DNA of 64,000 nt from Burkholderia ubonensis subsp. mesacidophila. Its GTDB lineage: Bacteria; Pseudomonadota; Gammaproteobacteria; Burkholderiales; Burkholderiaceae. Of this stretch, positions 529 through 14,547 are shown in pieces. Made by a program: the position numbers and the translations under genes. The notes beneath the pieces were generated by a model. It worked only from the letters and a program-made list of their open reading frames with translations. It ran no database searches and was not told the origin of the DNA. How positions within the stretch are numbered: position 1 is the stretch's first letter; every line of letters begins with the position of its first letter. The stretch spans positions 3,224,001 to 3,288,000 of the forward strand of contig NZ_CP020737.1 in NCBI RefSeq assembly GCF_002097715.1. The letters run 5' to 3'.

Positions 529-1314
529 TCAACCGCGGTGCGCGTGCGGACGCCGCGCGAGCCGGCGCGCGACCAGCAGCGGCAGCCGCAGCACGAAGCC
601 CGCGATCAGCCGCAGGTGCATCCACGTGAGCAGCACGTTGTCGCGCCCGTAATGGAAGTGCGACACGCCGCCCTCGTTCTCGCGGAAATAGCGCACGGGC
701 GCGTCGATGCGGATCGGGCGCACGCCGGCCCAGCACAGCCGCACCGCGGCTTCGGGATCGAAGTCGAAGCCGCGCATCCACATCTGCCGGTGCATGATCG
801 CCGCGAGCGGCGCGACCGGATACACGCGAAAGCCGTACAGAGAATCGCCGATGCCGGCCCACAGCGTCTCGACGTCGGCCCACAGGTTCGACAGTCGCCG
901 CCCCTGCACGCGCAACCGCGGCGCGTCGGCGTCGAACTTCGGCATCCCGAGCACCATCGCGTCGGGCGCGGCCTGCGACTCCGCCATGAACGCGGGAATC
1001 AGGTGGGCCGGATGCTGGCCGTCGGAGTCCATCGTCAGCACGTGCGTGAAGCCGCGCGCGGCGGCCGCGTCGAGCCCCGCGAGCACCGCCGCGCCCTTGC
1101 CGCGGTTCTCCGGCAGCACGATCACGTGCAGCCCCGGATCGCGCTCGGCCAGCGCCTGCAGGCGCTCGGCGCTGCCGTCGGTGCTGCCGTCCACGACCAC
1201 CCACACCGGATTCCACTGCGCGCGGGCGCTGCGCACGGTCGCATCGACCCTGAGGCCCGGGTTGTAGCTCGGAATCAGCACGAGATGGGTGGACGAAGCG
1301 CGCGGCGAGGACAT
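529..1314 (-). CDS. family 2 glycosyltransferase of the aryl-polyene-like cluster
   Basis: Predicted 261-residue GT-A fold enzyme that transfers a sugar from a nucleotide-sugar donor to an acceptor. The N-terminal nucleotide-binding region reads LVLIPSYNPG, then VVVDGSTDGS, and the metal-binding DxD-like motif is TMDSDGQH near residue 100. The C-terminal end is rich in Arg and Leu and could lie against the membrane. The start at MSSPRASS was chosen because longer frames run into the neighbouring reductase. Family 2 glycosyltransferases recur in aryl-polyene and xanthomonadin clusters, where they modify the lipid acceptor. The acceptor here is not known. It lies 89 bases downstream of the ketoreductase gene, probably in one operon with it. 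Confidence 0.85.
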   Translation of the reverse strand: MSSPRASSTHLVLIPSYNPGLRVDATVRSARAQWNPVWVVVDGSTDGSAERLQALAERDPGLHVIVLPENRGKGAAVLAGLDAAAARGFTHVLTMDSDGQHPAHLIPAFMAESQAAPDAMVLGMPKFDADAPRLRVQGRRLSNLWADVETLWAGIGDSLYGFRVYPVAPLAAIMHRQMWMRGFDFDPEAAVRLCWAGVRPIRIDAPVRYFRENEGGVSHFHYGRDNVLLTWMHLRLIAGFVLRLPLLVARRLARRPHAHRG

Positions 1315-1403
1315 GGGCACGGCCAAGGTCGAAGACGGGGATCCTGACGGAATTTTATGACCTGCCGACGACCCGCGGCATCGGGTTTCCACGTCCGGCA
1401 TCG

Positions 1404-2120
1404 TCATGCGAGGCCGCCGTTGACCGACAGCACCTGCCCCGTCACGTAGGCCGCCGCATCCGACACGAGATACGCGACCATGCCCGCGACTTCGTCGGGC
1501 CGGCCCGCGCGCTGCGCGGGCACGAGCTGCTTGATGCGTTCGGCGGGAAACGCGTGTTCGGCCATCGGCGACGCGATGATGCCGGGCGCGACCGCGTTCA
1601 CGGTGATGCCGCGCGATGCGAGCTCGAGCGACAGCGACCGGGTCGCGCCGATCAGCCCGGCCTTCGCGGCCGCATAGTTGACCTGCCCGCGGTTGCCGGT
1701 CACGCCCGCGACCGACGCGATGTTGACGATCCGCCCCCAGCGCGTGCGGATCATCGGCAGCAGCAGCGGCTGCGTGACGTTGAAGAAGCCGTTCAGCGAC
1801 ACGTCGATCACGCTGCGCCATTGCTGCCGCGACATGCCGGCCATCGGCGCGTCGGCGTGGATGCCCGCGTTGTTGACGAGGATCTGCACCGGCGCGTCGT
1901 CGACGAGCCGCGCGAGCGCGGCGTCGACCGCGTCGGCGTCGGTCACGTCGAACGCGATCGCATGCGCGGCGCCGCCTGCCGCGACGATCCGCTGCGCGAC
2001 CGCCTCCGCCTGCGCGAGATGGCGGTTCGCGTGCACCCAGACTTCATGGCCGGCCAGCGCCAGCGCTTCGCAGATCGCCTGCCCGAGCGCGCCGCTGCCG
2101 CCCGTCACGAGCGCGCGCAT
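1404..2120 (-). CDS. 3-oxoacyl-ACP reductase (FabG-like ketoreductase)
   Basis: A 238-residue short-chain dehydrogenase that would reduce 3-oxoacyl chains on an acyl carrier protein with NADPH. Visible motifs are the cofactor loop TGGSGALG (6-13), NNAG (83-86), catalytic Asn110, Ser136 and the Y149-x3-K153 pair. The length is slightly shorter than housekeeping FabG. Its position between an ACP gene and a glycosyltransferase gene, divergent from ketosynthase and dehydratase genes, points to a dedicated secondary pathway rather than primary fatty acid synthesis. It corresponds in role to the ketoreductase of aryl-polyene clusters. Exact substrate is inferred from context only. Confidence 0.88.
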   Translation of the reverse strand: MRALVTGGSGALGQAICEALALAGHEVWVHANRHLAQAEAVAQRIVAAGGAAHAIAFDVTDADAVDAALARLVDDAPVQILVNNAGIHADAPMAGMSRQQWRSVIDVSLNGFFNVTQPLLLPMIRTRWGRIVNIASVAGVTGNRGQVNYAAAKAGLIGATRSLSLELASRGITVNAVAPGIIASPMAEHAFPAERIKQLVPAQRAGRPDEVAGMVAYLVSDAAAYVTGQVLSVNGGLA

Positions 2121-2236
2121 CGACCGTCTCCTTCCATGTGCGTTTCACTCCGATCGACGCGGCGGCGGCGAAGCGCCTGCTTCGCATCCGGCCGCGTGCC
2201 GTTGTCACCGATTTCGCGCCGAAGCGGCGCGCGACG

Positions 2237-2500
2237 TCATTTCGCGCGATGCGCGGCGACGTAGTCGGCGAGCGCGCCGAGCGTCGCGAAGATCCTTTCG
2301 TTATCCGGATTGTCCGAGCGCAGCTCGAAGCCGTACTTCTTCGAGATCAGCAGCGCGATTTCCAGGATGTCGATGGAGTCGAGCCCGAATCCTTCCCCAT
2401 ACAACGGAGTGTCGGCGGTCACTGCGTCGAGCGACACGTCTTCGAGATTCAGTTCGCCGATGATCAGCGCGGCGAGCTCTTGTTCCAGTGCGTTCATCAT
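2237..2500 (-). CDS. acyl carrier protein
   Basis: An 87-residue acidic carrier protein. The phosphopantetheine attachment motif is GLDSIDILE with Ser42 as the modified residue, counting from the first of two adjacent ATG codons; the second would shorten the protein by one residue. It would carry the growing acyl chain for the ketosynthase, reductase and dehydratases encoded in this cluster. Well-studied aryl-polyene clusters usually have two carrier proteins; only one is seen here. It is the first gene of the leftward operon, facing a 547-base divergent control region. Confidence 0.9.
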   Translation of the reverse strand: MMNALEQELAALIIGELNLEDVSLDAVTADTPLYGEGFGLDSIDILEIALLISKKYGFELRSDNPDNERIFATLGALADYVAAHRAK

Positions 2501-3047
2501 GCTTGCAAACAGGCAGCGCACGGCAGCGGGAGCGCACGGGAACGGCGGTCTCGCCATTCCTCCGGCGTCCGCCGGCCACCCCGCCCGTGTTTTTGGGGAT
2601 CGTTTGGTAAAAGTTACGCGGATTCTAGTCGACGGGTATCGGGGCGTATACGGTGAAAGGGTTACAGACGTGCGGGCCCGCGCCGCCCGCATTTCGGGAC
2701 GCGAACCCACGGGACGCTTGAGCCGCTTTGGATGGAAATGGATCGGCCGCGCGGCGGGCTGCGCGCGGCGCCATACAATCGGTTACAAAACCCCTTCCCG
2801 CCCACCCGAAAGTCCACCGTCAGGCACCCTAAAATGTGCGTGCCATGACAGTCGGCCGGCCCCTTGCCCCGGCCGCCATTCCTAAGACAATTGACGGCCC
2901 GACTCTCGCGTCGCGCCCCCGACCCGTATCGACGCACCCAGCCATGCCGTGCCCACCCGTTCGCCGCATTTTTGCGCCTGTTCCGATCCGCTGCCGCGCT
3001 GCCGCCGCACGCGCCGGCGGCGCGCGCCATGCGCCCGGAGCCGCGCA
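2501..3047. promoter_or_regulatory. divergent intergenic region between ACP and membrane-protein genes
   Basis: A 547-base stretch between oppositely transcribed operons, long for this genome and likely to hold both promoters. A TACAAT element occurs at 2774-2779, but I found no matching -35 at normal spacing. A short open frame (2844-3051) overlaps the next start codon as ATGA; its Arg/Ala/Pro-rich translation looks like GC-rich noise, so I do not call it a gene. No terminator or RNA gene was recognised. Confidence 0.45.
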
Positions 3048-3704
3048 ATGAGCACGCCGGAGCGCATCGCGCGCGGCACGCTCGCCGTCGGCGCGGTGGT
3101 CGCGTACCAGGCCGGCGCGCATTACGCTGCCGCGACGCCGGGCGCGCATGGCTTCGGCCTCGCGATGGCGCTCGTGCCGCCGCTCTTGCTCGCGCTCGGC
3201 GCGGCGCTGCGCTCGCCGCGCCGAGCGTGGCTCGTGCCGGCCTGGGCGCTCGCCGCCGCCGCGCTGTGGATGGCGCGCGAACCGCTCGCGCGGCATTTCG
3301 GCTGGGGTCTGTATCTCGAGCACGTGAGCTTCAACCTCGCGATGGCGCTGCTGTTCGGCCGCACGCTGGCGGCCGGGCAGACGCCGCTCTGCTCACGCTT
3401 CGCAGCGATGATCCACGGCGCGCTCACGCCGGCCGTCGCGCGCTACACGCGGCAGATCACCGTCGCGTGGACGCTGTTCTTCGTCGCGATCGCCGCCGTG
3501 TCGACGCTGCTGTTCGCGACCGCGCCGATCGTCGCGTGGTCGACGTTCGCGAACTACCTGTCGCTGCCGCTCGTCGCCGTGATGTTCGCCGCCGAGCATG
3601 CGTGCCGGCGCTTCGCGCTGCCGCACGAGCCGCGGCCGCGCATGCTCGACGCGGTGCGCGCGTACCGGCAGTCGACCGGGGCCCGCGCCAGCCATGCGCG
3701 CTGA
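3048..3704 (+). CDS. predicted inner-membrane protein (COG4648-like)
   Basis: A 218-residue hydrophobic protein with about five or six membrane segments, for example around residues 9-24, 38-56, 60-76, 136-160 and 165-180. It resembles the small COG4648 membrane proteins found as a regular member of aryl-polyene gene clusters, whose biochemical role is not established. The ATG at MSTPERIARG was chosen because the upstream in-frame extension is low-quality Arg-rich sequence. It is the first gene of the long rightward operon and lies 58 bases before the acyl-activating enzyme gene. Family assignment is by resemblance, not search. Confidence 0.7.
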   Translation: MSTPERIARGTLAVGAVVAYQAGAHYAAATPGAHGFGLAMALVPPLLLALGAALRSPRRAWLVPAWALAAAALWMAREPLARHFGWGLYLEHVSFNLAMALLFGRTLAAGQTPLCSRFAAMIHGALTPAVARYTRQITVAWTLFFVAIAAVSTLLFATAPIVAWSTFANYLSLPLVAVMFAAEHACRRFALPHEPRPRMLDAVRAYRQSTGARASHAR

Positions 3705-3762
3705 ATTCACGGCCGGCGCCGCGTGGCGGCCGCGCCGGCCCCGCTTTCATTGCCGCTGATTT

Positions 3763-5523
3763 ATGCCGACTTATCCGCTGGTTTTCCATTCGTCCCCGGA
3801 GCAGACGATCGCATGGCGCGACGGCGCGCGCGTGACCGTGCGCGCCTTCCTCGCCGACGTCGCGCGCGTGGCCGCCGCGCTGCCCGCGGGCGGCCACGTG
3901 CTCAACGTGTGCCGCGATCGCTACCGCTTCGCCGTCGGCCTGTGCGCGGCGCTCGTCGCCGGCAAGGTCAGCCTGCTGCCGTCCACGCTGACGCCGGAAA
4001 CGGTCCGCCAGCTCGCGTCGTTCGCGCCCGATGCGTTCTGCCTGCACGACGCGCCCGGCTGCACGATCGACCTGCCGCGCTTCGCGTATCCCGACGCCGC
4101 GCCGGCGAACGGCGTGGGCGATGCGGACGATGCGCCGTTCGCCGTCCCGCGGATCGATGCGTCGCGGTTGATGGCCTATGTGTTCACGTCCGGCTCGACC
4201 GGCGCACCGGTGCCGCACCGCAAGACCTGGGGCAGCCTGGTCGGCTGCCTGCGCGCATCGACCGAGCGCCTCGGGCTGCTCGACGGCCGCGCGTACACGC
4301 TGGTCGGCACGGTGCCCGCGCAGCACATGTACGGCTTCGAAGCGACGGTGCTACTCGCGCTGGTCGGCGGGTTCGCGTTCAGCAACCGCCTGCCGTTCTA
4401 CCCGCTCGACATCCGCGCGGCGCTCGACGCGGTGCCGCAGCCGCGCGTGCTCGTCGCGTCGCCGATCCACCTGCGCGCGCTGCTGTCGTCCGCGCACGCG
4501 CTGCCGCGCGCCGCACTCGTGCTGTCGGCGACCGCGCCGCTCGCGGCCGCGCTCGCGCGCGAAGCCGAGGCCGCGCTCGACGCGCCGCTCGTCGAGATCT
4601 ACGGCAGCACCGAGACCGGCCAGATCGCGACGCGCCGCACCGCGCGGGACGCGACCTGGCAACTGTTTCCGGGCATCCGCGTCGATGCGCGCGCAAGCGC
4701 CGACGATGACGGCGAGCCGACCGTGTGGATCTCCGGCGCGCACGTCGACGCGCCCGTGCCGATGGGCGACGCGCTCGAACTGCTCGGCGACGGCCGCTTC
4801 CTGCTGCACGGCCGCAAGGCGGACCTCGTCAACATCGCGGGCAAGCGCACGTCGCTCGCATACCTGAATCATCAGCTCAATGCGATCCCCGGTGTCGCCG
4901 ACGGCGTGTTCTTCATGCCCGACGACGCGCCGCACGCCGGCCGCGCGGCGGGCGTCGAACCCGTCACGCGACTCGTCGCGCTCGTCGTCGCGCCGACGCT
5001 GACGGCCGCCGGCCTGCAACGCGCGCTGCGCGAGCGGATCGACCCCGCGTTCATGCCGCGCCCGCTCGTGTTCGTCGACGCGCTGCCGCGCAACGACACC
5101 GGCAAGCTGCCGCGCGACGTGCTCGCGGCGCTGGTCGCCCGGCATACGCACGCCGCGCCGTCGCCCGCGCCCGCGCCCGCGCCCGATCGCGACGCCGACG
5201 CGGCGAACGCGCTCGCGTTCACGATCCCCGCCGACCATCCGGCGCTGCCCGGCCACTTCCCCGGCCATCCGATCGTGCCCGGCGTCGTGCTGCTCGATCA
5301 CGCGATCACCGCGATCGGCGCGGCGCTGAACCGCCCGCTGCACGCGTGGCGGCTCGGCTCCGCGAAATTCCTGAGCCCGGCCGCGCCCGGCGAGCCGCTC
5401 GACCTCGCGTTCGACGCGGCGGCCAGCGGCGCGATCCGCTTCACCGTGCGCGCCGGGCGCCGCGACATCGCGACCGGCGTGCTGTCCGCGCCGCCGGCCG
5501 CGCGGGAGGCGACGCCCGCATGA
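3763..5523 (+). CDS. acyl-activating enzyme fused to a hot-dog dehydratase domain
   Basis: A 586-residue two-domain protein. Residues 1-460 form an AMP-binding (ANL) ligase with FTSGSTG at 141-147, YGSTETG near 280, a GRKADLVNIAGK hinge near 350 and an RNDTGK lysine loop near 445; it should activate a carboxylic acid and load it onto the carrier protein. A Pro/Ala linker follows. The last 110 residues contain HPALPGHFPGHPIVPGV, the signature of FabZ/ApeI-type 3-hydroxyacyl-ACP dehydratases. In the E. coli aryl-polyene cluster these activities are separate genes, so the fusion is notable. The gene overlaps the acyltransferase gene by ATGA, indicating translational coupling. Confidence 0.85.
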   Translation: MPTYPLVFHSSPEQTIAWRDGARVTVRAFLADVARVAAALPAGGHVLNVCRDRYRFAVGLCAALVAGKVSLLPSTLTPETVRQLASFAPDAFCLHDAPGCTIDLPRFAYPDAAPANGVGDADDAPFAVPRIDASRLMAYVFTSGSTGAPVPHRKTWGSLVGCLRASTERLGLLDGRAYTLVGTVPAQHMYGFEATVLLALVGGFAFSNRLPFYPLDIRAALDAVPQPRVLVASPIHLRALLSSAHALPRAALVLSATAPLAAALAREAEAALDAPLVEIYGSTETGQIATRRTARDATWQLFPGIRVDARASADDDGEPTVWISGAHVDAPVPMGDALELLGDGRFLLHGRKADLVNIAGKRTSLAYLNHQLNAIPGVADGVFFMPDDAPHAGRAAGVEPVTRLVALVVAPTLTAAGLQRALRERIDPAFMPRPLVFVDALPRNDTGKLPRDVLAALVARHTHAAPSPAPAPAPDRDADAANALAFTIPADHPALPGHFPGHPIVPGVVLLDHAITAIGAALNRPLHAWRLGSAKFLSPAAPGEPLDLAFDAAASGAIRFTVRAGRRDIATGVLSAPPAAREATPA

Positions 5524-6494
5524 AGCGCACCGCATGGGCCCGGCGCCAGGAGCGCAGCAACACGCCGCTGCTGCGCGCGATGACGTGGATCTCGCTGCGG
5601 TTCGGGCGGCGCGCCGCGCGCGTCGTGCTGCATCTCGTCGCGACCTACTTCGTGCTGTTCTCGCCGTGCGCGTGCGCGGCGTCGCGCGGCTACCTGCGCC
5701 GCGCGCTCGGCCGGCCCGCGCGCTGGCGCGACGTGTACCGGCACGTGTTCACGTTCGCTTCGACGATCCACGACCGCGTGTACCTGATGAACGGGCGCTT
5801 CGACCTGTTCGACGTCCGCCTGCACGGCGAGGCGCACGTCGTCGCCGCGCTCGCGGGCGGACGCGGCGCGTTCCTGATCGGCGCGCACCTCGGCAGCTTC
5901 GAGGTCGTGCGCGCGCTTGGCCGCACGCAGCCGGACCTGCGCGTCGCCGTCACGATGTATGAGGAAAACGCGCGCAAGATCAACGCGACGCTGGCCGCCG
6001 TGAATCCCGCCGCGAAGCCGGACGTGATTCCGCTCGGGCAGGTCGATTCGATGCTGAAGGTGCGCGAGCGCCTCGACGCGAACTGCATGGTCGGCATGCT
6101 CGCCGACCGCACGCTGCGCGACGACGCCGCCGCGTCGACCCGGCGGCTCGACCTGCTCGGCGCGCCGGCCGCGTTCCCGCTCGGGCCGCTGTACATGGCC
6201 GCGATGCTCGGGCGCCCGGTGATCTTCATGACCGGCCTCTATCGCGACGGCAACCGCTACGACGTCCACTTCGAGCCGCTCGCCGATTTCTCCGGCGTGC
6301 GCCGCGACGCGCGCGCGGCCGCCGTCGACGCGGCGCTCGCGCGCTACGTCGCGCTGCTCGACCAGTACTGCCGCACCGCGCCGTACAACTGGTTCAACTT
6401 CTTCGACTTCTGGCAGGACGGCGACGCCCCCGCCGCGCATCGCGACGACGCGCCGGTGCGCGCCGCCGGCCTGTCCGCCACAAGGGATTCCTGA
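5520..6494 (+). CDS. LpxL/HtrB-like lipid acyltransferase
   Basis: A 324-residue lysophospholipid/lipid A-type acyltransferase. The catalytic HX4E motif is in GAHLGSFE (His123, Glu128), after a hydrophobic N-terminal segment near residues 31-50 that would anchor it at the inner membrane. It would transfer an acyl group, plausibly the cluster's own product from its carrier protein, to a lipid or glycolipid acceptor. Such acyltransferases are standard in aryl-polyene clusters, sometimes fused to a glycosyltransferase; here the glycosyltransferase is a separate gene in the divergent operon. It overlaps the previous gene by four bases and is three bases from the next. Confidence 0.85.
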   Translation: MKRTAWARRQERSNTPLLRAMTWISLRFGRRAARVVLHLVATYFVLFSPCACAASRGYLRRALGRPARWRDVYRHVFTFASTIHDRVYLMNGRFDLFDVRLHGEAHVVAALAGGRGAFLIGAHLGSFEVVRALGRTQPDLRVAVTMYEENARKINATLAAVNPAAKPDVIPLGQVDSMLKVRERLDANCMVGMLADRTLRDDAAASTRRLDLLGAPAAFPLGPLYMAAMLGRPVIFMTGLYRDGNRYDVHFEPLADFSGVRRDARAAAVDAALARYVALLDQYCRTAPYNWFNFFDFWQDGDAPAAHRDDAPVRAAGLSATRDS

Positions 6495-6497
6495 CGC

Positions 6498-7106
6498 ATG
6501 GCCGCATTCCGCCGCTTCCCGTTCACCGCCGCCGTTGCCAGCCTCGCTGCCGCCGTCGCGCTGGCCGCGCCCGCGCGCGCGGCGGACGCCGGCGCGCCGT
6601 GGAGCCTCGACCGGCTGATGTCGACGCTCGCGCAGCACAAGTCCGGCCGCGCGACGTTCACCGAGACGAAAAACCTGTCGATCGCCGCGCAGCCGGTCGA
6701 GTCGTCCGGCGAGCTCGTGTTCGTCGCGCCCGATCATCTCGAGAAGCACACGCTGAGCCCGAAGCCCGAACACCTCGTGGTCGACGGCGACATGCTGACC
6801 GTCGAGCGCAACAACCGCAAATACACGCTCGCGCTCGACCGCTATCCGGAGCTCGGCGCGTTCATCGACAGCATTCGCGCGACGCTCTCCGGCAACCGCT
6901 TCGCGCTCGAGCGGGTGTACAAGGTCGCGCTGTCGGGGCGCGGCGACGACTGGACGCTGACCCTCACGCCGCTCGACTCGCGGATGCTGAAGGTCGTCAG
7001 CACGATCACGCTCGACGGCACGCGCGACGTATTGCGCAGCGTCGCGATCCGGCAGGCCGACGGCGACCGCTCGCTGATGCGCCTGCAACCCGTTCCGGCG
7101 AACTGA
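6498..7106 (+). CDS. LolA-like outer-membrane lipid carrier protein
   Basis: A 202-residue exported protein with a clear signal peptide: a basic start, a hydrophobic core at residues 10-24 and an APARAADA cleavage region near residue 29. The mature part resembles LolA-type lipid-binding proteins of aryl-polyene clusters, with a beta-rich middle (GELVFVAPDHLEKHTL). Such proteins are thought to shuttle a hydrophobic product through the periplasm, working with the MMPL exporter encoded next. The stop codon overlaps that gene's start by one base, so the pair is probably translationally coupled. Confidence 0.8.
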   Translation: MAAFRRFPFTAAVASLAAAVALAAPARAADAGAPWSLDRLMSTLAQHKSGRATFTETKNLSIAAQPVESSGELVFVAPDHLEKHTLSPKPEHLVVDGDMLTVERNNRKYTLALDRYPELGAFIDSIRATLSGNRFALERVYKVALSGRGDDWTLTLTPLDSRMLKVVSTITLDGTRDVLRSVAIRQADGDRSLMRLQPVPAN

Positions 7107-9571
7107 TGGACGATCGCGCCCGCCACGCTCCCGTCGCCCGAGGCCTGCGCGCGCTGCGGCAGCGCGCGGTGCTCGCGTGGCTGCTGGGCCTGCTCGCCTG
7201 CGCTTTCGCGATCGGCCACGCGAGCTTCACCGCCGACCTGTCCGCGTTCCTGCCGCGCTCGCCGAGCGCCGGGCAGCGCGTGCTCGTCGACCAGCTGCGC
7301 GACGGCCTCGTGTCGCGGCTGATCCTCGTCGCGATCGACGGCGACACCGCCGCCGCGCGCGCGGCGCTGTCGCGGCGCATGGCCGCGACGCTACGCGACG
7401 ATCCGCAGTTCGCGGCGGTCAACAACGGCGAGCCGGTCAACGACGCGCGCGACCAGCAGTTCATCGTCGCGCATCGCTACCTGCTGAGCCCGGCCGTGAC
7501 GCCGCGGCGCTTCACCGCCGACGGCCTGCACCAGGCGCTCGGCGACAGCCTCGACCTGCTGAGCTCGTCGGCCGGCCTCGTCGCGAAGGCGCTGCTGCCG
7601 CACGACCCGACCGGCGAAGTCGCCGCGCTCGTCGGCCAGCTCGACAGCGGCGCGCTGCCGGCGGTGCGCAACGGCGTGTGGGCGTCGCGCGACGGCGCGC
7701 GCGCGGTGCTCGTCGTGCAGACGGCCGCCGCCGGCTCCGACACCGATGCGCAGGCGCGCGCGATCGACGCCGTGCGCCGCGCGTTCGACGCGGCGCGGCA
7801 GGCGGCGCCGGGCGCGTCGTCCTGCACGCTCGCGATGACCGGCCCCGGCGTGTTCTCGGTCGACACGCGCGACACGATCAGGCGCGACGTCGAGCGCCTG
7901 TCGACGCTGAGCGTGCTGCTGATCGTCGCGCTGCTGCTGACGCTGTACCGCTCGCCGCGCACGCTCGCGCTCGGGCTGCTGCCGGTGCTGTCGGGCATCG
8001 TGGCCGGGCTCGCGGCGGTCAGCGTCGCGTTCGGCACGGTCCACGGGCTGACGCTCGGCTTCGGCACCACGCTGATCGGCGAGGCGGTCGACTACTCGAT
8101 CTACCTGTTCGTGCAGTCGGCGCAGGCCGGCCCGCGCCCCGCGGCGCGCGCGGCCGACGCGACGCGCGCGTGGCTCGCCGCGTACTGGCCGACGATCCGG
8201 CTCGGCGTGCTGACCTCCGTCTGCGGCTTCGCGTCGATGCTGTTCTCGGGCTTCCCCGGCCTCGTGCAGCTCGGGCTGTATTCGATCGCGGGCCTGACGG
8301 CCGCCGCGCTCGTCACGCGCTTCGTGCTGCCGCCGCTGCGCGGCGAGCATGTCGCGATCCGCGACGTGTCGCGCGTCGGCGCGGCGCTCGCGCGCGCGGT
8401 CGCCGCCGCGCCACGCCTGCGCTGGCCGCTGGCCGCGCTGGTGCTCGCCGCGTGCGTGGCGCTCGCGCTGCATCGCGACGGCATGTGGAGCCGCGAGCTC
8501 GCCGCGCTGAGCCCGGTGCCCGAGCGCGCGCAGGCGCTCGACGCACGCCTGCGCGCCGACGTCGGCGCGCCCGACGTCCGCTATCTGGTCGTGATTCCCG
8601 CAGCCGGCGAACAGGCCGCGCTCGAAGGCGCGGAGCGCGTCGCCGCGCAACTGCAGCCGCTCGTCGAGCGCGGCGCGCTCGCCGGCTTCGAGAACCCCGC
8701 GCGCTACTTGCCGAGCGACGCCGCGCAACGCGCGCGGCAGGCAAGCCTGCCGGACGCCGGCACGCTCGCCGCGCGGCTGCGCGCAGCCGTCGCGCACCAG
8801 CCGATCACCGTCAGGCCGGACCTGTTCGCGCCGTTCGTCGCCGACATCGACGCCGCGCGCCACGCGCCGCTCCTGACGCGCGCGGACCTGCGCGGCACGT
8901 CGATGGCGCTCGCGGTCGATGCGCTGCTGACCGAGCGCGCGGGCCGCTGGAGCGCGATGCTGCCGCTGCGCGCGCCGGACGCCGCACGCGCGGCGCACGC
9001 GGCGCAAGCCGCGCCGAGCCTCGACTCGGCGCCGATCCGCGCGGCCGTCGCGCGCGCCGGCGTGCCCGGCGCGCTGTTCATCGACATGAAGGCCGAGGCC
9101 GACCGCCTCTACGTGGACTACGTGCGCGAGGACATCCGCCTGTCGCTCGCGGGCTTCGCGGCCATCGCGGTGCTGCTGCTGATCGCCCTGCGCTCGCCGC
9201 GGCGCGTCGTGCGCGCGCTCGCGCCGCTCGTCGCGGCCGTGCTGGTCGTGGCCGCGGGCTTCGCGGTCGCGGGCGTGCCGCTGACGATCCTGCACCTGAT
9301 CGGCATGCTGCTGATCGTCGCGGTCGGCTCGAACTACGCGCTGTTCTTCTGCAAGCGCGGCGATGCGCAACCCGTCACGCCCCACACGCTCGTGTCGCTG
9401 CTGGTCGCCAATCTCGCGACGGTCGCCGGCTTCGGGCTGCTCGCGTTGTCGCACGTGCCGCTGCTCGAAACCTTCGGCCTGACCGTCGGCCCGGGCGCGA
9501 TGCTCGCGCTCGCGTTCGCCGCGATCCTGGCGCCGCCGGCCGCCGCACCTCTGCAGGGAGGCCTCACATGA
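7106..9571 (+). CDS. MMPL/RND-family exporter
   Basis: An 821-residue inner-membrane transporter with the duplicated RND layout: one N-terminal helix (residues 20-40), a large periplasmic loop, a helix bundle at about 265-425, a second loop, then a second bundle at about 675-815. SSD-like membrane blocks read GFGTTLIGEAVDYSIYLF and IGMLLIVAVGSNYALFF, with acidic or polar residues at the proton-relay positions. Relatives in aryl-polyene and flexirubin clusters are believed to export the finished lipid. Exact cargo is inferred. The gene overlaps the deacetylase gene by ATGA. Confidence 0.88.
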   Translation: MDDRARHAPVARGLRALRQRAVLAWLLGLLACAFAIGHASFTADLSAFLPRSPSAGQRVLVDQLRDGLVSRLILVAIDGDTAAARAALSRRMAATLRDDPQFAAVNNGEPVNDARDQQFIVAHRYLLSPAVTPRRFTADGLHQALGDSLDLLSSSAGLVAKALLPHDPTGEVAALVGQLDSGALPAVRNGVWASRDGARAVLVVQTAAAGSDTDAQARAIDAVRRAFDAARQAAPGASSCTLAMTGPGVFSVDTRDTIRRDVERLSTLSVLLIVALLLTLYRSPRTLALGLLPVLSGIVAGLAAVSVAFGTVHGLTLGFGTTLIGEAVDYSIYLFVQSAQAGPRPAARAADATRAWLAAYWPTIRLGVLTSVCGFASMLFSGFPGLVQLGLYSIAGLTAAALVTRFVLPPLRGEHVAIRDVSRVGAALARAVAAAPRLRWPLAALVLAACVALALHRDGMWSRELAALSPVPERAQALDARLRADVGAPDVRYLVVIPAAGEQAALEGAERVAAQLQPLVERGALAGFENPARYLPSDAAQRARQASLPDAGTLAARLRAAVAHQPITVRPDLFAPFVADIDAARHAPLLTRADLRGTSMALAVDALLTERAGRWSAMLPLRAPDAARAAHAAQAAPSLDSAPIRAAVARAGVPGALFIDMKAEADRLYVDYVREDIRLSLAGFAAIAVLLLIALRSPRRVVRALAPLVAAVLVVAAGFAVAGVPLTILHLIGMLLIVAVGSNYALFFCKRGDAQPVTPHTLVSLLVANLATVAGFGLLALSHVPLLETFGLTVGPGAMLALAFAAILAPPAAAPLQGGLT

Positions 9572-10446
9572 ATGCGCCGTCATCCACACCGTCATCCGTG
9601 CCGCGCCCCGGCGACGCGCGCCGCTGGAAGCCGACGCCGCTCGTCGCGGGCGCGGCCGCGCTGCACGCGGGCGCGGCCGCGGCCGTCGTCGCGCAGCCGG
9701 CGAGCTGGCCGTGGGCGGCCGGCGGCGTGGTCGCGTCGCACCTCGTGCTGACGGCGGCGGGCCTGTGGCCGAAGAGCGCGCTGCTCGGCCCGAACTGGAC
9801 GCGCCTGCCGGACAGCGCCGGCCAACGGATCGCGCTGACGATCGACGACGGCCCCGACCCGGACATCACGCCGCGCGTGCTCGACCTGCTCGACCGCTAC
9901 GACGCGCAGGCGACGTTCTTCTGCATCGGCGAGCTCGCGCGCCGGCATCCGCGGTGGATCGAAGCGATCGTCGCGCGCGGCCATGCGGTCGAGAATCACA
10001 GCCAGCGGCACCGGCACACGTTCTCGCTGTCGGGCCCGCGCGCGCTGCGGCGCGAGATCGAGGCCGCGCAGCGCACGCTGACCGAGCTCAGCGGCACGCG
10101 CCCGCTGTTCTTCCGCGCGCCCGCAGGCCTGCGCAACCCGTTCCTCGAGCCGGTGCTGTGCGAGCTCGGCCTGCAGCTCGCGAGCTGGACGCGGCGCGGC
10201 TTCGACACACGCGAGCGCGATGCCGGCGTGGTCACGCGCCGCCTGCTGCACAGGCTCGCGCCGCGCGACATCCTGCTCGTGCACGACGGCCATGCGGCGC
10301 GCGACGCGCGCGGCGAACCGGTCGTGCTCGACGTGCTGCCGGCCGTGCTGCGCGCGGCCGCCGACGCGCAATTGCGCTGGACGACGCTGCGCGCCGCGCT
10401 CGAGCCGGAACCGCCCGCAGCGGCCGGCCAGACAGCACCTGTTTGA
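9568..10446 (+). CDS. NodB-type polysaccharide deacetylase, membrane-anchored
   Basis: A 292-residue carbohydrate esterase family 4 protein. The NodB motifs are complete: TIDDGPD (91-97) with the catalytic Asp93 and metal-binding Asp94, metal ligands His144 and His148 in HSQRH, RAPAG (183-187), and LLVHDGH (236-242). Two hydrophobic segments at about 26-42 and 50-66 suggest membrane anchoring. It should remove an N- or O-acetyl group from a sugar, possibly the one added by the cluster's glycosyltransferase. A deacetylase is not part of the E. coli-type aryl-polyene gene set I know, so it is a distinguishing feature here. Confidence 0.87.
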   Translation: MNAPSSTPSSVPRPGDARRWKPTPLVAGAAALHAGAAAAVVAQPASWPWAAGGVVASHLVLTAAGLWPKSALLGPNWTRLPDSAGQRIALTIDDGPDPDITPRVLDLLDRYDAQATFFCIGELARRHPRWIEAIVARGHAVENHSQRHRHTFSLSGPRALRREIEAAQRTLTELSGTRPLFFRAPAGLRNPFLEPVLCELGLQLASWTRRGFDTRERDAGVVTRRLLHRLAPRDILLVHDGHAARDARGEPVVLDVLPAVLRAAADAQLRWTTLRAALEPEPPAAAGQTAPV

Positions 10447-10452
10447 TAAAAT
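10444..10452 (+). promoter_or_regulatory. possible internal extended -10 promoter before the ketosynthase gene
   Basis: The sequence TGATAAAAT fits an extended -10 element (TGnTAnAAT) and lies 75 bases before the ketosynthase start, in one of the few real gaps of this operon. Its TGA is also the deacetylase stop codon. No good -35 was seen, so it may be chance. Confidence 0.3.
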
Positions 10453-10526
10453 TCAATGGCTATCGGCGCGCCGCGCGGCCTCATCCCGCACCGCGGCGCC
10501 CGGTCCGGCAACCGGATTCGACCCTC

Positions 10527-11750
10527 GTGAACCCTCTCCTGCTTTCGCATTTCACGGCCACCAGCTGCATCGGGCGCGGACTCGACGCGACCGTCGCCGC
10601 GCTGCGCGGCGCGCGCGGCGGACTCGCGCGATGCGACTTCGAGCGCGCGCACCTCGACACGTGGATCGGCGCGGTGGACGGCGTCGACGCGCAGCCGGTG
10701 CGCGCCGACCTGAGCGACTTCGAATGCCGCAACAACCGTCTCGCGCAGCTCGGCCTCACCCAGGACGGCTTCGCCGAACGCGTCGCGGCCGCCGTGGCGC
10801 GCTACGGCGCGGAACGTGTCGGCGTGTTCGTCGGCACCAGCACGGCCGGCATCCTCGAGACCGAGCACGCGTACCGGCGCCGCGACCCGCAAAGCGGCGC
10901 GCTGCCGGCCGGCTTCCACTATGCGCAGACCCACAACCCGTATTCGCCCGCCGCGTTCGTGCGCGCGTACTTCGCGCTGCGCGGCCCGGCGCTGGCGGTG
11001 TCGTCCGCGTGCTCGTCGGGCGCGAAGGTGTTCGGCTCCGCGCGCCGCATGCTCGCCGCGGGCCTGATCGATGCGGCGGTCGTCGGCGGCGTCGATTCGC
11101 TGTGCCTCACGACGCTGTACGGCTTCAATTCGCTCGAACTGCTGTCGCGCCGGCCGTGCCGGCCGTTCGACGTCGCGCGCGACGGGATCTCGATCGGCGA
11201 GGCCGCCGCGTTCGCGCTCGTCGAGCGCGTGCCCGCGTCGCCCGATACGCTCGACGACGACGCGATCCTGCTGCTCGGCATCGGCGAGTCGAGCGACGCG
11301 CATCACATGTCGTCGCCGCATCCGGACGGGCTCGGCGCGCGCGCCGCGATCGAGCAGGCGCTGGCGTCGGCCGGCCTCGGCGCGGCCGACATCGACTACA
11401 TCAACCTGCACGGCACCGCGACGCCGAGCAACGACGCCGCGGAAAGCCGCGCGGTCGGCGCGCTGTTCGCGCAGACGCCGTGCAGCTCGACCAAGGGCGC
11501 GACCGGCCACACGCTCGGCGCAGCCGGCGCGCTCGAAGCGGTCGTCGCCGCCGTCGCGCTGCGCGGCCAGTTCGTGCCGGCCGGCGTCAACACGACGCAC
11601 CCCGACCCGGCGCTCGCCACCGACTACGTGCTCGCGAGCCGCGACGCGCGCGTGCGCGCCGTGCTCAGCAATGCGTTCGGCTTCGGCGGCACCAACTGCA
11701 GCCTGATCCTCGGCCGCGCCGACTACGCGCGCCGCCGGCAACCGACATGA
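10527..11750 (+). CDS. beta-ketoacyl-ACP synthase (FabF-like)
   Basis: A 407-residue elongating ketosynthase with an intact catalytic triad: Cys162 in SSACSSGAK, His295 in NLHGTATPSND and His328 in GATGHTLGAAG. It would condense malonyl-ACP with the growing chain on the cluster carrier protein. No suitable ATG exists near the N-terminus; the GTG used here gives the usual family length and start (VNPLLLSHFTATSCIGRG), though the ribosome-binding site is weak. It overlaps the chain-length-factor gene by ATGA, suggesting the two proteins form a heterodimer, as in type II polyene and polyketide systems. Confidence 0.88.
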   Translation: MNPLLLSHFTATSCIGRGLDATVAALRGARGGLARCDFERAHLDTWIGAVDGVDAQPVRADLSDFECRNNRLAQLGLTQDGFAERVAAAVARYGAERVGVFVGTSTAGILETEHAYRRRDPQSGALPAGFHYAQTHNPYSPAAFVRAYFALRGPALAVSSACSSGAKVFGSARRMLAAGLIDAAVVGGVDSLCLTTLYGFNSLELLSRRPCRPFDVARDGISIGEAAAFALVERVPASPDTLDDDAILLLGIGESSDAHHMSSPHPDGLGARAAIEQALASAGLGAADIDYINLHGTATPSNDAAESRAVGALFAQTPCSSTKGATGHTLGAAGALEAVVAAVALRGQFVPAGVNTTHPDPALATDYVLASRDARVRAVLSNAFGFGGTNCSLILGRADYARRRQPT

Positions 11751-12565
11751 CACTCAGCGCCTACATCGAGAGCATCGGCCTCATCGGGCCGGGATTGAAC
11801 GACTGGCCGCACGCCGCCGACGTGCTCGCCGGCCGCGCGGCCTATGCGAGCGCGCGCACCGCGCTGCCGCCGCCGGCCGGCCTGCCGAGCGCCGAGCGGC
11901 GGCGCACCGGCCCCGTCGTGCGGGTCGCGCTCGCGGTCGGCCGCGAAGCGGTTGCCGCCAGCGGACGCGACGCCGCGACGCTCGCGACCGTGTTCAGCGC
12001 GTCCGGCGGCGACGGCCAGAACTGCCACGTGATCTGCGAAACGCTCGCGGGCGACGACCGGCTGCTGTCGCCCACGCGCTTCCACAACTCCGTGCACAAC
12101 GCGCCGGCCGGTTACTGGAGCATCGCGACGGGCTCGACGGCCGCGTCGAACGTGCTGTGCGCGCACGACGGCAGCTTCGCCGCCGGCCTGCTCGAAAGCG
12201 TCTGCCAGGTTGCGGTCGATCGCGTGCCGTGCCTGCTGATCGCGTACGACACCGACTATCCGGAGCCGCTGCGCGCGGTGCGCCCGATCGTCGATGCGTT
12301 CGGCGTCGCGCTCGTGCTCGCGCCCGAGGCCGGCGCGGCCACGCTCGCGCGCATCGACGTGCAGCTCACCGATGCGCCCGCGACGGCGCTCGCGTCGCCC
12401 GCGCTCGAAGCGTTGCGCGTCGGCAATCCCGCCGCGCGCGCGCTGCCGCTGCTCGATGCGCTCGCCGCGCGGCGCGCCGCGCGCGTCGTGCTCGACTATC
12501 TGGCGGATCGGCGCGTGCAGGTCGACGTCGCGATGCCGGATGGCTTCGCGGAGCCTGCGCGATGA
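11747..12565 (+). CDS. ketosynthase chain-length-factor-like protein
   Basis: A 272-residue truncated thiolase-fold protein of the beta-ketoacyl synthase-like family typical of aryl-polyene clusters. The hallmark stretch NSVHNAPAGYW is present near residues 108-118. The usual active-site cysteine is missing: the corresponding nucleophile region reads GSTAASN. It is therefore unlikely to condense on its own and more likely pairs with the full ketosynthase, helping set chain length. It is well under the 400 residues of a full ketosynthase. It overlaps both neighbours by four bases, so stoichiometric expression is likely. Confidence 0.8.
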   Translation: MTLSAYIESIGLIGPGLNDWPHAADVLAGRAAYASARTALPPPAGLPSAERRRTGPVVRVALAVGREAVAASGRDAATLATVFSASGGDGQNCHVICETLAGDDRLLSPTRFHNSVHNAPAGYWSIATGSTAASNVLCAHDGSFAAGLLESVCQVAVDRVPCLLIAYDTDYPEPLRAVRPIVDAFGVALVLAPEAGAATLARIDVQLTDAPATALASPALEALRVGNPAARALPLLDALAARRAARVVLDYLADRRVQVDVAMPDGFAEPAR

Positions 12566-13053
12566 CGGCCGCCGGCACGACGCGCGATCGCGCGTGGATC
12601 GCCGCGCACATTCCGCACGACGGCGCGATGTGCCTGCTCGACACGGTCGACTTCTGGGACGACGCGCGAATCCGCTGCACGGCGACGAGCCACCGCGATC
12701 CGCGCAACCCGCTGCGCGCGCACGGTCGGCTCGCGTCGGTCTGCGGGATCGAATACGCGGCGCAGGCGATGGCCGTGCACGGCGCGCTCGTCGGCGCGCC
12801 GCGCGAGCGGCCGCGCGCCGGCTTTCTGGCAAGCGTGCGCGGCGTCGACGCGTTCGTCGAGCGCCTCGACACCTGCGACGCGCCGCTGACCGTCGAAGCC
12901 GAGCGCGTCGGCGGCGACGACGTCACGGTGCTGTACGGTTTCACGCTTCGCTGCGGCGAGCGCGTGCTGCTGAGCGGCCGCGCCGCGGTGATGCTCGATG
13001 CATCCGCGGCCGGCGCGCTTCGCCCGCCTGGCGGCGGCGCGCAATTTCGATGA
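12562..13053 (+). CDS. 3-hydroxyacyl-ACP dehydratase (ApeP-like)
   Basis: A 163-residue single hot-dog-fold protein resembling the second dehydratase of aryl-polyene clusters. An N-terminal IPHDGAMCLLD stretch (residues 17-27) and the CGIEYAAQAMAVHGAL helix (61-76) match the general layout of these proteins. Together with the dehydratase domain fused to the acyl-activating enzyme it gives the cluster two dehydratases, as expected when every ketoreduction is followed by dehydration to give a conjugated polyene. Translationally coupled to the preceding gene by an ATGA overlap; the following small gene starts 22 bases later. Confidence 0.8.
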   Translation: MTAAGTTRDRAWIAAHIPHDGAMCLLDTVDFWDDARIRCTATSHRDPRNPLRAHGRLASVCGIEYAAQAMAVHGALVGAPRERPRAGFLASVRGVDAFVERLDTCDAPLTVEAERVGGDDVTVLYGFTLRCGERVLLSGRAAVMLDASAAGALRPPGGGAQFR

Positions 13054-13075
13054 CAACGTCGGGAGGAATCAGGTT

Positions 13076-13378
13076 GTGAAAGGTCGTCAGTTCATTTTTG
13101 CCGCACTCGTGTTCGCGTCGGTTTGCCCGGCCGCGCACGCGGACCTGTCCGAGGTGAAGCAGGACATCAAGCGCGATTCGAAGGAAGCCGCGCACAAGAC
13201 CGGCGAGGCCGCGCGCAGCTTCGGCCATGCGACCGCGAGCGCCGCGAAGGCGGTCGGCCACGGCGTCGCGCATGCATCGCGCGAGGGCTGGGACGCGACC
13301 AAGCACGCGTCGCGCGAAGGCTGGGACGCGACCAAGCGCACGACGAAGCGGGTGTTCCACAAGGACGGCAGCGACTGA
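13076..13378 (+). CDS. small secreted Lys/Ala/His-rich repeat protein
   Basis: A 100-residue protein with a signal peptide (hydrophobic core about residues 6-20, cleavage after AAHA). The mature part is rich in Lys, Ala and His, predicted largely helical, and holds an exact 11-residue tandem duplication, HASREGWDATK, encoded by a 33-base repeat. The GTG start is chosen for a good Shine-Dalgarno sequence (GGGAGGA) about eight bases upstream. I do not recognise the family; composition recalls LEA-like or histone-H1-like proteins. Its position at the end of the lipid operon suggests a periplasmic accessory role, which is inference only. Confidence 0.75.
   Translation: MKGRQFIFAALVFASVCPAAHADLSEVKQDIKRDSKEAAHKTGEAARSFGHATASAAKAVGHGVAHASREGWDATKHASREGWDATKRTTKRVFHKDGSD
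13271..13336 (+). repeat. 33-base tandem duplication inside the small secreted protein gene
   Basis: Two adjacent 33-base units (13271-13303 and 13304-13336) differ at only a few bases and each encodes HASREGWDATK. The in-frame length preserves the protein. Confidence 0.9.
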
Positions 13379-13426
13379 ACGCAGTCCGCGGCGGCGCAGC
13401 GCATGGCTGCGCCGCCACGCATCCGC

Positions 13427-13624
13427 TCAGCCTGCCCGGCGCTTCGCCCTGACGCCGCCGCGCATGGCCGCTTTGCCGTATGCCGCGCGCCAGCAGTCGC
13501 GGTGGTCGAATTCGCGCAGCAAGCGCGCGCGGCGCCGCTCGAGCCAGTAGTGAACGATCGTCGCCGTCAGCGCGACGGCGAGCGCCGCCCCGCCGATCGC
13601 GAGCCCCATCGAAGTGTCACCCAT
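13427..13624 (-). CDS. small membrane protein, unknown function
   Basis: A 65-residue protein with one strongly hydrophobic N-terminal helix (about residues 6-25, GLAIGGAALAVALTATIVHYW) followed by a basic Arg/Lys-rich tail ending KRRAG. The layout suggests an inner-membrane protein with a cytoplasmic positively charged tail. Start chosen at MGDTSMG; a second in-frame ATG five codons later is also possible. It is convergent with the small secreted protein gene, 48 bases apart, and precedes nothing closely in its own direction. No family recognised; it could still be a chance frame. Confidence 0.5.
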   Translation of the reverse strand: MGDTSMGLAIGGAALAVALTATIVHYWLERRRARLLREFDHRDCWRAAYGKAAMRGGVRAKRRAG

Positions 13625-13803
13625 GCCTGCTCCGGAATGTGAAGCCGCGGCGACGCGTCGGGCGGACGACGGCGAGCGGCCCGCCGGACGCGTGGGAACG
13701 GGCCCGTGTCCGTCATCGTCATCGCACCCGCGTGCTGCCCCGGCGCGGGATACCGCTGGAGCACGGCCCGGGCGCGCGACCGCGCAGCCCGGGCCGCCGC
13801 GCG

Positions 13804-14547
13804 TCAATGCATGTGCTGCCCGCCGTTGATCGCGATGTTGGAGCCGGTCACGAAGCCCGCCTCCTCGGAGCACAGGTACGCGACGAGCCCCGCGACCTCG
13901 TCCGGCTTGCCGAGCCGGCCGGCCGGAATCTGCGGCAGGATCTTGCTGTCGAGGACGTCCTGCGGAATCGCCGTCACCATCTTCGTCGCGAGATAGCCGG
14001 GCGACACGGTGTTCACCGTCACGCCCTTGCGCGCGACTTCCAGCGCGAGCGATTTCGTGAAGCCGTGCATGCCGGCCTTCGCGGCCGCGTAGTTGGTCTG
14101 GCCGACCGAACCCTTCGAGCCGTTGACCGACGAGATGTTGACGATCCGCCCCCAGCCGCGCTCGACCATCCCTTCGCACACCGGCTTGGTCATGTTGAAC
14201 ACGGAATCGAGGTTGGTGCGGATCACCGCGTCCCAGTTGACCTTGTCGAGCTTGCGGAACGTCATGTCGCGCGTGATGCCCGCGTTGTTCACCAGCACGT
14301 CGATCGGCCCGACGTCCTGCACGATCTTCGCCACGCATTGCTGGCACGAGTCGTGATCGGCCACGTCCACCGGATACGCGTGGAATTCGCGGCCCGCGGC
14401 GTGCATTTCGGTCAACCAGCGGTCGACGCCATTGTTGTTCGGCGAATACGTGACGACAACCCGGTAGCCCGCGTCGTGCAACCGGATGCTGATTGCCTCG
14501 CCGAGACCGCCCATTCCACCTGTCACAACTGCAATTCGCTTAGTCAT
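13804..14547 (-). CDS. phaB: acetoacetyl-CoA reductase PhaB
   Basis: A 247-residue NADPH-dependent short-chain dehydrogenase reducing acetoacetyl-CoA to (R)-3-hydroxybutyryl-CoA for polyhydroxybutyrate synthesis. Motifs: GGMGGLG cofactor loop (10-16), NNAG (87-90), Ser140, Tyr153 and Lys157. The start MTKRIAVVTGG is preceded by an AGGATG-containing ribosome-binding region; a longer frame adds poor sequence. It is close in sequence style to Cupriavidus PhaB, including the MTxRIAVVTGGMGGLGEAI opening. It follows phaA by 202 bases on the same strand. Confidence 0.95.
   Translation of the reverse strand: MTKRIAVVTGGMGGLGEAISIRLHDAGYRVVVTYSPNNNGVDRWLTEMHAAGREFHAYPVDVADHDSCQQCVAKIVQDVGPIDVLVNNAGITRDMTFRKLDKVNWDAVIRTNLDSVFNMTKPVCEGMVERGWGRIVNISSVNGSKGSVGQTNYAAAKAGMHGFTKSLALEVARKGVTVNTVSPGYLATKMVTAIPQDVLDSKILPQIPAGRLGKPDEVAGLVAYLCSEEAGFVTGSNIAINGGQHMH

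What the first reader, a model, noticed from the sequence alone, without database searches (positions are those of the whole stretch)
529..13378. Divergent aryl-polyene-like lipid cluster lacking recognised starter-unit genes
The sequence shows a carrier protein, ketoreductase, ketosynthase, chain-length-factor-like partner, two dehydratase domains, acyl-activating enzyme, LpxL-like acyltransferase, glycosyltransferase, LolA-like carrier and MMPL exporter, many with ATGA overlaps. Known aryl-polyene and xanthomonadin clusters share this set but also carry genes such as an aromatic ammonia-lyase, a thioesterase, a second carrier protein and an oxidoreductase, none of which is seen here. The pathway may therefore use a different starter and make an unknown envelope lipid.
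Basis: partly seen in the sequence, partly recalled or inferred. Interest (0 to 1): 0.75.

Follow-up and report, generated by a model that had tools for sequence, protein, structure and literature searches.

The report
Pigment gene cluster missing its starter gene
This is a known kind of bacterial gene cluster for a yellow membrane pigment, but in this Burkholderia and its nearest kin the gene that usually makes the pigment's starting ring is gone, so the starting piece probably now comes from ordinary metabolism.

Summary
The cluster is real and intact: 12 biosynthetic and transport genes plus a small exported protein, of the xanthomonadin/aryl-polyene family. Yet a starter gene is truly missing. 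Most Burkholderia with the cluster have a chorismatase (XanB2/FkbO/Hyg5 family) gene, between the ketoreductase and glycosyltransferase genes wherever I could read the place. None was found in the window's genome; one relative keeps a broken remnant. Of 80 named loci, 25 carry it in this slot, 49 lack it, 6 could not be read. Of 48 lacking genomes searched, 13 have one elsewhere, 35 none, and all 48 have chorismate lyase UbiC. The tree needs at least 7 changes. The other genes remain under purifying selection. Most likely the pathway now starts from UbiC-made 4-hydroxybenzoate and still makes an aryl-polyene lipid. Ligase residue 194 drifts where the chorismatase is gone within Burkholderiaceae, but this did not replicate in 87 wider genomes. 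New variant of a known kind; a similar cluster without xanB2 was already in print for Ralstonia solanacearum.

The parts
529..1407 (-). Family-2 glycosyltransferase (GT2); true start may lie further in than 1407
   Evidence: PF00535 E=3.5e-21; next to KR or chorismatase in kin
1404..1407 (-). Junction of KR stop and GT2: the slot that holds a chorismatase gene (about 1.2-1.4 kb more) in most Burkholderia, empty here
1404..2120 (-). Ketoreductase (FabG/SDR type)
   Evidence: NF004200 351.8 bits, cut-off 273
2237..2500 (-). Acyl carrier protein with LDSID motif
   Evidence: NF006617/PRK09184 151 bits, cut-off 70; motif at residues 40-44
3051..3704 (+). Membrane protein in the position of ApeG/ArcU; family not tested; exact start uncertain
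   Evidence: two strongly hydrophobic stretches; no Pfam or NCBIfam match; conserved in kin
3763..5523 (+). AMP-dependent ligase (place of ApeH/ArcT/XanA2) fused to a C-terminal hotdog dehydratase (ApeI type)
   Evidence: PF00501 E=7.5e-19; model matches MenE, PchD, CahJ, DhbE among others; C-terminal FabZ motif GHFPG, His498; profile match to 6qsr_A E=1.6e-4
5520..6494 (+). LpxL/HtrB-type acyltransferase
   Evidence: PF03279 E=3.1e-8
6498..7106 (+). LolA-like periplasmic lipid carrier
   Evidence: PF19574 E=1.1e-21; best NCBIfam hit the flexirubin LolA2 model, below its cut-off
7106..9571 (+). MMPL/RND-type exporter
   Evidence: PF03176 E=7.4e-15; 9 hydrophobic segments
9568..10446 (+).
   Evidence: PF01522 E=2.6e-27; arcN in PMC3949708
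10527..11750 (+). Ketosynthase (ApeO type), Cys162-His295-His328
   Evidence: NF006618/PRK09185 563.8 bits, cut-off 407; best PDB sequence 6qsp_A; residues
11747..12565 (+). Ketosynthase partner / chain-length-factor type (ApeC type)
   Evidence: PF13723 E=1.5e-23; only PDB matches at E<=0.001 are 7f28_A and 6qsp_B
12562..13053 (+). Second hotdog dehydratase (ApeP type), Glu64
   Evidence: weak match to 6qsr_B, E=0.028; no Pfam or NCBIfam match; conserved place in kin
13073..13378 (+). Small protein with a signal-peptide-like start that travels with the cluster; role unknown; start codon not settled
   Evidence: one hydrophobic N-terminal stretch; HYP entries of layouts

Best explanation
It is an aryl-polyene (xanthomonadin/arcuflavin-type) pathway whose own chorismatase gene was deleted. 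Shown: the window's genes are present and open, no chorismatase is found in its genome, and the absence recurs in relatives. Inferred: 4-hydroxybenzoate made from chorismate by UbiC is adenylated and loaded on the carrier protein by the AMP-ligase. The KS/CLF pair, the ketoreductase and the two dehydratases (His498 in one, Glu64 in the other, perhaps one split site) extend it with malonyl units without enoyl reduction, giving a conjugated polyene. The LpxL-type acyltransferase joins it to an amino-sugar or glycerol lipid shaped by GT2 and the deacetylase. MMPL and the LolA-like protein move it to the outer membrane.
For: Family and closest solved relatives are the aryl-polyene KS-CLF pair and, weakly, the dehydratase pair (that 6QSP and 6QSR are aryl-polyene complexes is recalled). 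The gene set equals the published Azoarcus arc set minus chorismatase, halogenase, PlsC, MipA and a few more. The missing gene is a PF21168 chorismatase in kin, matched in 39 of 45 genus genomes with the cluster's CLF and 1 of 16 without. G000 has none (best E=0.353) but has UbiC. G221 keeps a broken remnant in the same slot. Chorismatase and cluster distances agree (Mantel r=0.982, 30 loci, 0 of 999 permutations), so absence is best read as loss. Selection on the cluster relative to flanking genes is not relaxed in the loss clade (mean dN/dS 0.341 against 0.180 in controls; with chorismatase 0.171 against 0.097). E. coli is predicted to feed the same pathway with 4-HBA from UbiC (PMC8253772).
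Against: No product is known. The genus has UbiC in 61 of 61 genomes, with or without the chorismatase, so UbiC does not show a switch. Parsimony cannot tell loss from gain on every branch, and the tree is a quick one with long branches. One of the five loss-clade loci (G230, L061) has its ketoreductase split over two frames. The genes could be silent in this strain. The evidence for DH2 and the membrane protein is weak.
Confidence: 0.6

Rival explanations
1. The pathway still starts from 3-hydroxybenzoate, obtained from another enzyme or from outside (soil or plant phenolics), so the product is unchanged and only the dedicated supply was lost.
For: Ligase residues 188-193 and 279-284 (pocket by motif) are identical in 27 loci with and 38 without chorismatase, and no ligase column shows a fixed difference. 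Azoarcus ArcT accepts 3-HBA and benzoic acids modified in 4-position (PMC3949708, section 21).
Against: No PF21168 gene in 35 of 48 searched genomes with an empty slot nor in G000; residue 194 drifts in loss lineages of Burkholderiaceae.
Confidence: 0.2
2. The pathway starts from a non-aromatic acid (for example a short fatty acid) and makes an unknown alkyl polyene lipid.
For: No dedicated aromatic starter gene is left in the cluster; residue 194 is Ala in the window clade proper and Val, Thr, Asn or His in other loss lineages.
Against: The ligase model is closest to aryl-acid adenylating enzymes such as MenE, PchD, CahJ and DhbE, though amino-acid and malonyl ligases are near-tied; the motif H-M-Y-G-F-E is unchanged.
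Confidence: 0.08
3. The cluster is decaying: loss of the starter gene ended pigment production and the rest is on its way out.
For: dN/dS of the cluster is about twice as high in the loss clade as in chorismatase-bearing Burkholderia (0.341 against 0.171); the ketoreductase of G230 is split over two frames (may be an assembly error).
Against: Flanking control genes rise by about the same factor (0.180 against 0.097); in the window, L090, L105 and L110 each cluster gene lies in one open frame over nearly all its length; many loss lineages keep the whole set.
Confidence: 0.12

Closest known systems
Arcuflavin (arc) clusters of Azoarcus sp. BH72 (PMC3949708)
   Same: KS, short KS partner, two dehydratases, KR, ACP, AMP-ligase, acyltransferase, LolA, exporter, glycosyltransferase, polysaccharide deacetylase (table)
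   Different: arc has chorismatase ArcB, a halogenase, a second acyltransferase, a MipA-type protein, a methyltransferase and regulators, in two separate loci; the window has one locus without them and a fused ligase-dehydratase
Xanthomonadin (pig/xan) clusters of Xanthomonas
   Same: Single carrier protein, hydroxybenzoate-fed type II polyketide pathway (as described in PMC8253772, PMC3949708 and PMC9542644)
   Different: Xanthomonas uses the chorismatase XanB2; none found in the window genome. I compared no Xanthomonas sequence
Aryl polyene (ape) cluster of E. coli CFT073 (PMC8253772)
   Same: 4-HBA from UbiC (predicted there), KS/CLF, KR, two dehydratases, ligase, acyltransferase, LolA-like, RND exporter
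   Different: E. coli has a second ACP, a third KS, thioesterase, methyltransferase, a second acyltransferase (ApeD), LolB-like ApeN and lipoprotein ApeA; the window has a polysaccharide deacetylase
acpP2 cluster of Ralstonia solanacearum (PMC9542644)
   Same: pig-like cluster without a xanB2 homologue; its carrier protein restores xanthomonadin in a xanC mutant (passages)
   Different: Of the nine Ralstonia-clade loci of my tree none has the chorismatase in the slot, and eight also lack the in-cluster KR that the window has; R. solanacearum itself was not among them

Membership tests
Aryl polyene biosynthetic clusters (xanthomonadin/APE/arcuflavin) | ApeO-type ketosynthase with catalytic Cys-His-His | tested here: met
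   NF006618 563.8 bits; 6qsp_A best; Cys162, His295, His328
Aryl polyene biosynthetic clusters (xanthomonadin/APE/arcuflavin) | ApeC-type chain-length-factor partner next to it | tested here: met
   PF13723; only PDB matches at E<=0.001 are 7f28_A and 6qsp_B
Aryl polyene biosynthetic clusters (xanthomonadin/APE/arcuflavin) | ApeI/ApeP dehydratase pair with split active site | tested here: inconclusive
   FabZ-like GHFPG motif in one, IEYAAQ Glu in the other; 6qsr_B E=0.028, 6qsr_A E=0.14 alone and 1.6e-4 with a profile; the split-site role of these residues in 6QSR is recalled
Aryl polyene biosynthetic clusters (xanthomonadin/APE/arcuflavin) | Aryl-acid AMP-ligase loading the carrier protein | tested here: inconclusive
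   ANL fold, top rows aryl-acid ligases but other ligases near-tied (model pLDDT 68)
Aryl polyene biosynthetic clusters (xanthomonadin/APE/arcuflavin) | MMPL/RND exporter and LolA-like carrier | tested here: met
   PF03176, PF19574
Aryl polyene biosynthetic clusters (xanthomonadin/APE/arcuflavin) | Coloured aryl-polyene product | not testable with these tools
   needs chemistry
XanB2-fed (chorismatase-bearing) subtype | PF21168 chorismatase in the cluster or genome | tested here: not met
   none in G000: family best E=0.353, no protein match at E<=0.001
UbiC-fed APE subtype (E. coli type) | Chorismate lyase UbiC in the genome | tested here: met
   G000:C1:2786377-2786856, E=2.2e-18; present in kin with and without chorismatase alike
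UbiC-fed APE subtype (E. coli type) | Third ketosynthase, second ACP and thioesterase in the cluster | tested here: not met
   not among the scanned products of the cluster; no second strong ApeO-type KS in the genome; thioesterases elsewhere not searched

The most novel reading that the evidence does not exclude
After repeated loss of the chorismatase, Burkholderiaceae aryl-polyene ligases were freed from recognising the meta-hydroxyl of 3-hydroxybenzoate, residue 194 of the pocket drifted (Ala here), and these lineages now make aryl polyenes with a different head group: a natural, repeated starter-unit switch by gene loss inside one conserved cluster.
Probability: 0.28. Interest if true: 0.62.

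Novelty: new variant of a known kind. Interest (0 to 1): 0.42.

Why it matters
[quoted passage not shown] A cluster that is otherwise constant but has lost its starter gene several times gives natural contrasts (with and without chorismatase) in which to ask what fixes the head group, and whether primary metabolism can replace a dedicated supply enzyme. It also warns that cluster calling by core genes does not tell which ring the product bears.

Tried and rejected
Ammonia-lyase as the missing starter gene: rejected; it is not in the two published tables read, and the one Lyase_aromatic gene of G000 lies far away at C1:2533410-2534786, probably a histidine ammonia-lyase (not tested).

Chorismatase moved elsewhere in G000: rejected. 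It is elsewhere in 13 Caballeronia-clade genomes and perhaps in G224, which has only a 41%-identical relative on another contig.

Second aryl-polyene cluster supplying the starter: the next best ketosynthase in G000 after the window's has E=1.0e-42 and 36% identity, and there is a single CLF match. A published antiSMASH count of 2 arylpolyene clusters plus 1 hybrid for strain ATCC 31433 (PMC5472815, passages) is not explained by this.

Relaxed selection after the loss: a first control used a wrong-frame stretch for the GYD gene; corrected, cluster and control rise together, so I do not claim relaxation. Pairs are few and not independent, GC3 differs between groups, and the KR of L061 is covered only in part because its frame is split.

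Residue 194 as a switch: in the 83-row Burkholderiaceae-centred set Ser is in 44 of 45 with a chorismatase (in the slot or elsewhere) and 12 of 38 without, the largest contrast of all columns at least 95% fixed among carriers (2430 columns scanned). But independent pairs (7, none the other way) give a median p of 0.125. In a wider set of 87 genomes (of 96; 9 dropped because the fetched stretch held no ligase or, G193, only a weak piece) Ser or Thr is in 54 of 63 against 16 of 24 (p=0.068), Ser alone in 27 of 63 against 10 of 24 (p=1.0). So it stays a lead. Its match to DhbE Ser240 and the role of that residue are recalled; the pairwise alignments printed are to malonyl-CoA synthetase, which fit the register His188+6.

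One search mapped columns wrongly and was replaced. One search stopped with an error after part of its table and was replaced. The GYD query was in the wrong frame; the right frame matches PF08734, E=5.2e-29.

Full report
WHAT IS THERE. The stretch 529-13378 holds three genes on the minus strand (GT2, ketoreductase, acyl carrier protein) and ten on the plus strand (membrane protein, ligase-dehydratase fusion, LpxL-type acyltransferase, LolA-like, MMPL, polysaccharide deacetylase, ketosynthase, CLF-type partner, second dehydratase, small exported protein), read divergently from 2501-3050. Four longer frames of the gaps match no Pfam family. Downstream lie phaB-, phaA- and phasin-type genes.

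WHAT FAMILY. The ketosynthase passes NF006618/PRK09185 (563.8 bits against a cut-off of 407), and its best solved relative by sequence is 6qsp_A; the CLF-type protein matches only 7f28_A and 6qsp_B. That 6QSP and 6QSR are the X. doucetiae ApeO:ApeC and ApeI:ApeP complexes is recalled, not in the outputs. The ligase C-terminus carries a FabZ-type GHFPG (His498) and the second dehydratase a Glu64 in a FabZ-like stretch, with a weak match to 6qsr_B. The Azoarcus arc clusters list the same functions, including a polysaccharide deacetylase (PMC3949708, section 18 read).

THE LIST OF MISSING GENES. In the E. coli table (PMC8253772, first parts of Results and Discussion read) there is no ammonia-lyase; 4-HBA is predicted to come from UbiC. 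Deletion of the second ACP or of the thioesterase leaves part of the pigment, and Xanthomonas clusters have no second ACP. So those absences alone do not make the window's cluster odd.

THE GENE THAT IS REALLY MISSING. In many relatives a gene of about 410-490 codons sits between the ketoreductase and the glycosyltransferase. It is a PF21168 chorismatase (FkbO/Hyg5-like; E=4.5e-27 in a Burkholderia and 2.3e-41 in a distant relative), the family of XanB2 and ArcB (that these two fall in PF21168 is recalled), which make 3-HBA (XanB2 also 4-HBA) from chorismate (PMC3949708, section 21). Searched over 61 genomes of the genus it matches in 40. Among the 45 genomes with the cluster's CLF 39 match; of these, one (G221) is a remnant with the middle missing, one (G224) is only a 41% relative on another contig, and one (G227) is an N-terminal piece on a short match. 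The six without any match are G000 (the window), G206, G209, G218, G230 and G254. Of 16 genomes without the CLF one matches (G231, 82% complete). G000 has no PF21168 gene (best E=0.353). Here KR and GT2 meet directly, where carriers have about 1.2-1.4 kb more (7 carrier loci compared).

HOW OFTEN IT WAS LOST. In 80 named loci (the best 80 of 526; layouts; counts) the slot holds a chorismatase in 25, lacks it in 49 and is out of reach in 6. Of the 49, 48 genomes were searched: 13, all in the Caballeronia clade, have one elsewhere; in 35 none was found (many are drafts); UbiC is in 48 of 48. On a tree of six cluster proteins (94 rows, 84 labelled for the slot) the label needs at least 7 changes, all forced by well-supported branches (shuffled mean 25.2). 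The window sits with B. ubonensis LMG 20358 and G230 (support 100), and with B. stagnalis and strain SRS-46 (99), all without it. Distances of the chorismatase and of the cluster proteins agree closely (Mantel r 0.982, 30 loci, 0 of 999). Several distant relatives keep chorismatase beside PlsC, MipA or a halogenase-type gene and GT2 (for example L050 and L053), as do L154 and L162 (halogenase-chorismatase-PlsC-GT2) and, without PlsC, L164. This, and the G221 remnant, favour loss over gain; the tree itself cannot tell. In wider samples chorismatase is the rule: 70 of 96 genomes with related ligases or CLFs.

IS IT STILL USED. In the window, L090, L105 and L110 each cluster gene lies in one open frame over nearly all its length; in L061 (G230) the ketoreductase is split over two frames, by a real frameshift or an assembly error. 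dN/dS of 11 cluster genes is 0.341 on average in 7 loss-clade pairs and 0.171 in 9 carrier pairs; flanking controls give 0.180 and 0.097. So purifying selection holds, and the higher ratio is not specific to the cluster.

HOW IT MOST LIKELY WORKS. See Best explanation. Shown: gene content, no chorismatase found, presence of UbiC, conservation. Inferred from the families: ligation of 4-HBA to the carrier protein, polyene extension, lipid attachment, export.

THE LIGASE POCKET. Residues 188-193 and 279-284 are invariant in 27 loci with and 38 without the chorismatase, and no column is a fixed difference (Caballeronia clade, distant rows and L068 set apart). Residue 194 is Ser in 44 of 45 with and 12 of 38 without a chorismatase (Ala in the window, L090 and L061; Ser in L105 and L110; Val, Thr, Asn or His elsewhere). 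It does not reach significance in independent pairs (median p 0.125) and was not reproduced in 87 wider genomes (Ser/Thr 54 of 63 against 16 of 24, p=0.068; Ser alone p=1.0). I report it as a lead.

WHO IT IS. G000 has 7,840,830 bases in 4 contigs and the window is 95.1% identical over 15.6 kb to B. ubonensis LMG 20358. 'Pseudomonas mesoacidophila' ATCC 31433 has a 7.84 Mb genome in four contigs and is closest to B. ubonensis (PMC5472815, passages). I infer that the window is from this strain; not proven.

WHAT IS IN PRINT. Aryl-polyene clusters are reported for 49 of 60 Burkholderia species (PMC8506256, passages). A pig-like cluster without xanB2 is reported for R. solanacearum (PMC9542644, passages). 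I found no paper on chorismatase presence or loss in Burkholderia clusters; searches: in the open-licence library only (listings, plus the passages named). One search, which sought the aryl-polyene lipid structure, gave one paper that I did not open.

Noticed in passing
window 2001-14000: G+C is 0.70-0.76 across the cluster against 0.68 and 0.63 in the next two 2-kb steps, and GC3 of the cluster is 0.93 in the window clade against 0.89-0.91 in the chorismatase-bearing Burkholderia compared.
   Followed up: partly
L127, L128, L129, L131, L132, L134, L137, L138, L139, L159, L166: In these 11 loci (eight of the Ralstonia clade, three Paraburkholderia) no ketoreductase is found beside the carrier protein, so a housekeeping FabG may serve.
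   Followed up: no
L068: G224's locus looks mosaic: its ends (DH2 92%, small protein 96%, GT2 90%) are close to the window clade but its core groups with the B. lata side, as if the empty slot had been imported by recombination.
   Followed up: no
L061 13977-14694: The ketoreductase of G230 is split over two frames (residues 1-61 and 60-238), frameshift or assembly error.
   Followed up: partly
L074 5510-8857: Dehydrogenase-complex E1-alpha- and E2-like genes (by eye) lie upstream of the cluster in the window, L060, L068 and L069 (E1-like also in L062) but not in several kin.
   Followed up: no
window 13073-13378: A small exported protein with two REGWDATK stretches follows the cluster in Burkholderia, most Paraburkholderia and the Ralstonia clade but was not found in the Caballeronia loci; no family.
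   Followed up: no
G229, G232 (genus genomes): Two genomes without the CLF have two chorismate-lyase matches each.
   Followed up: no
window 3763-5523: Ligase and dehydratase are one frame in the Burkholderia loci laid out but separate frames in other relatives, e.g. L040, L045, L047, L048.
   Followed up: partly
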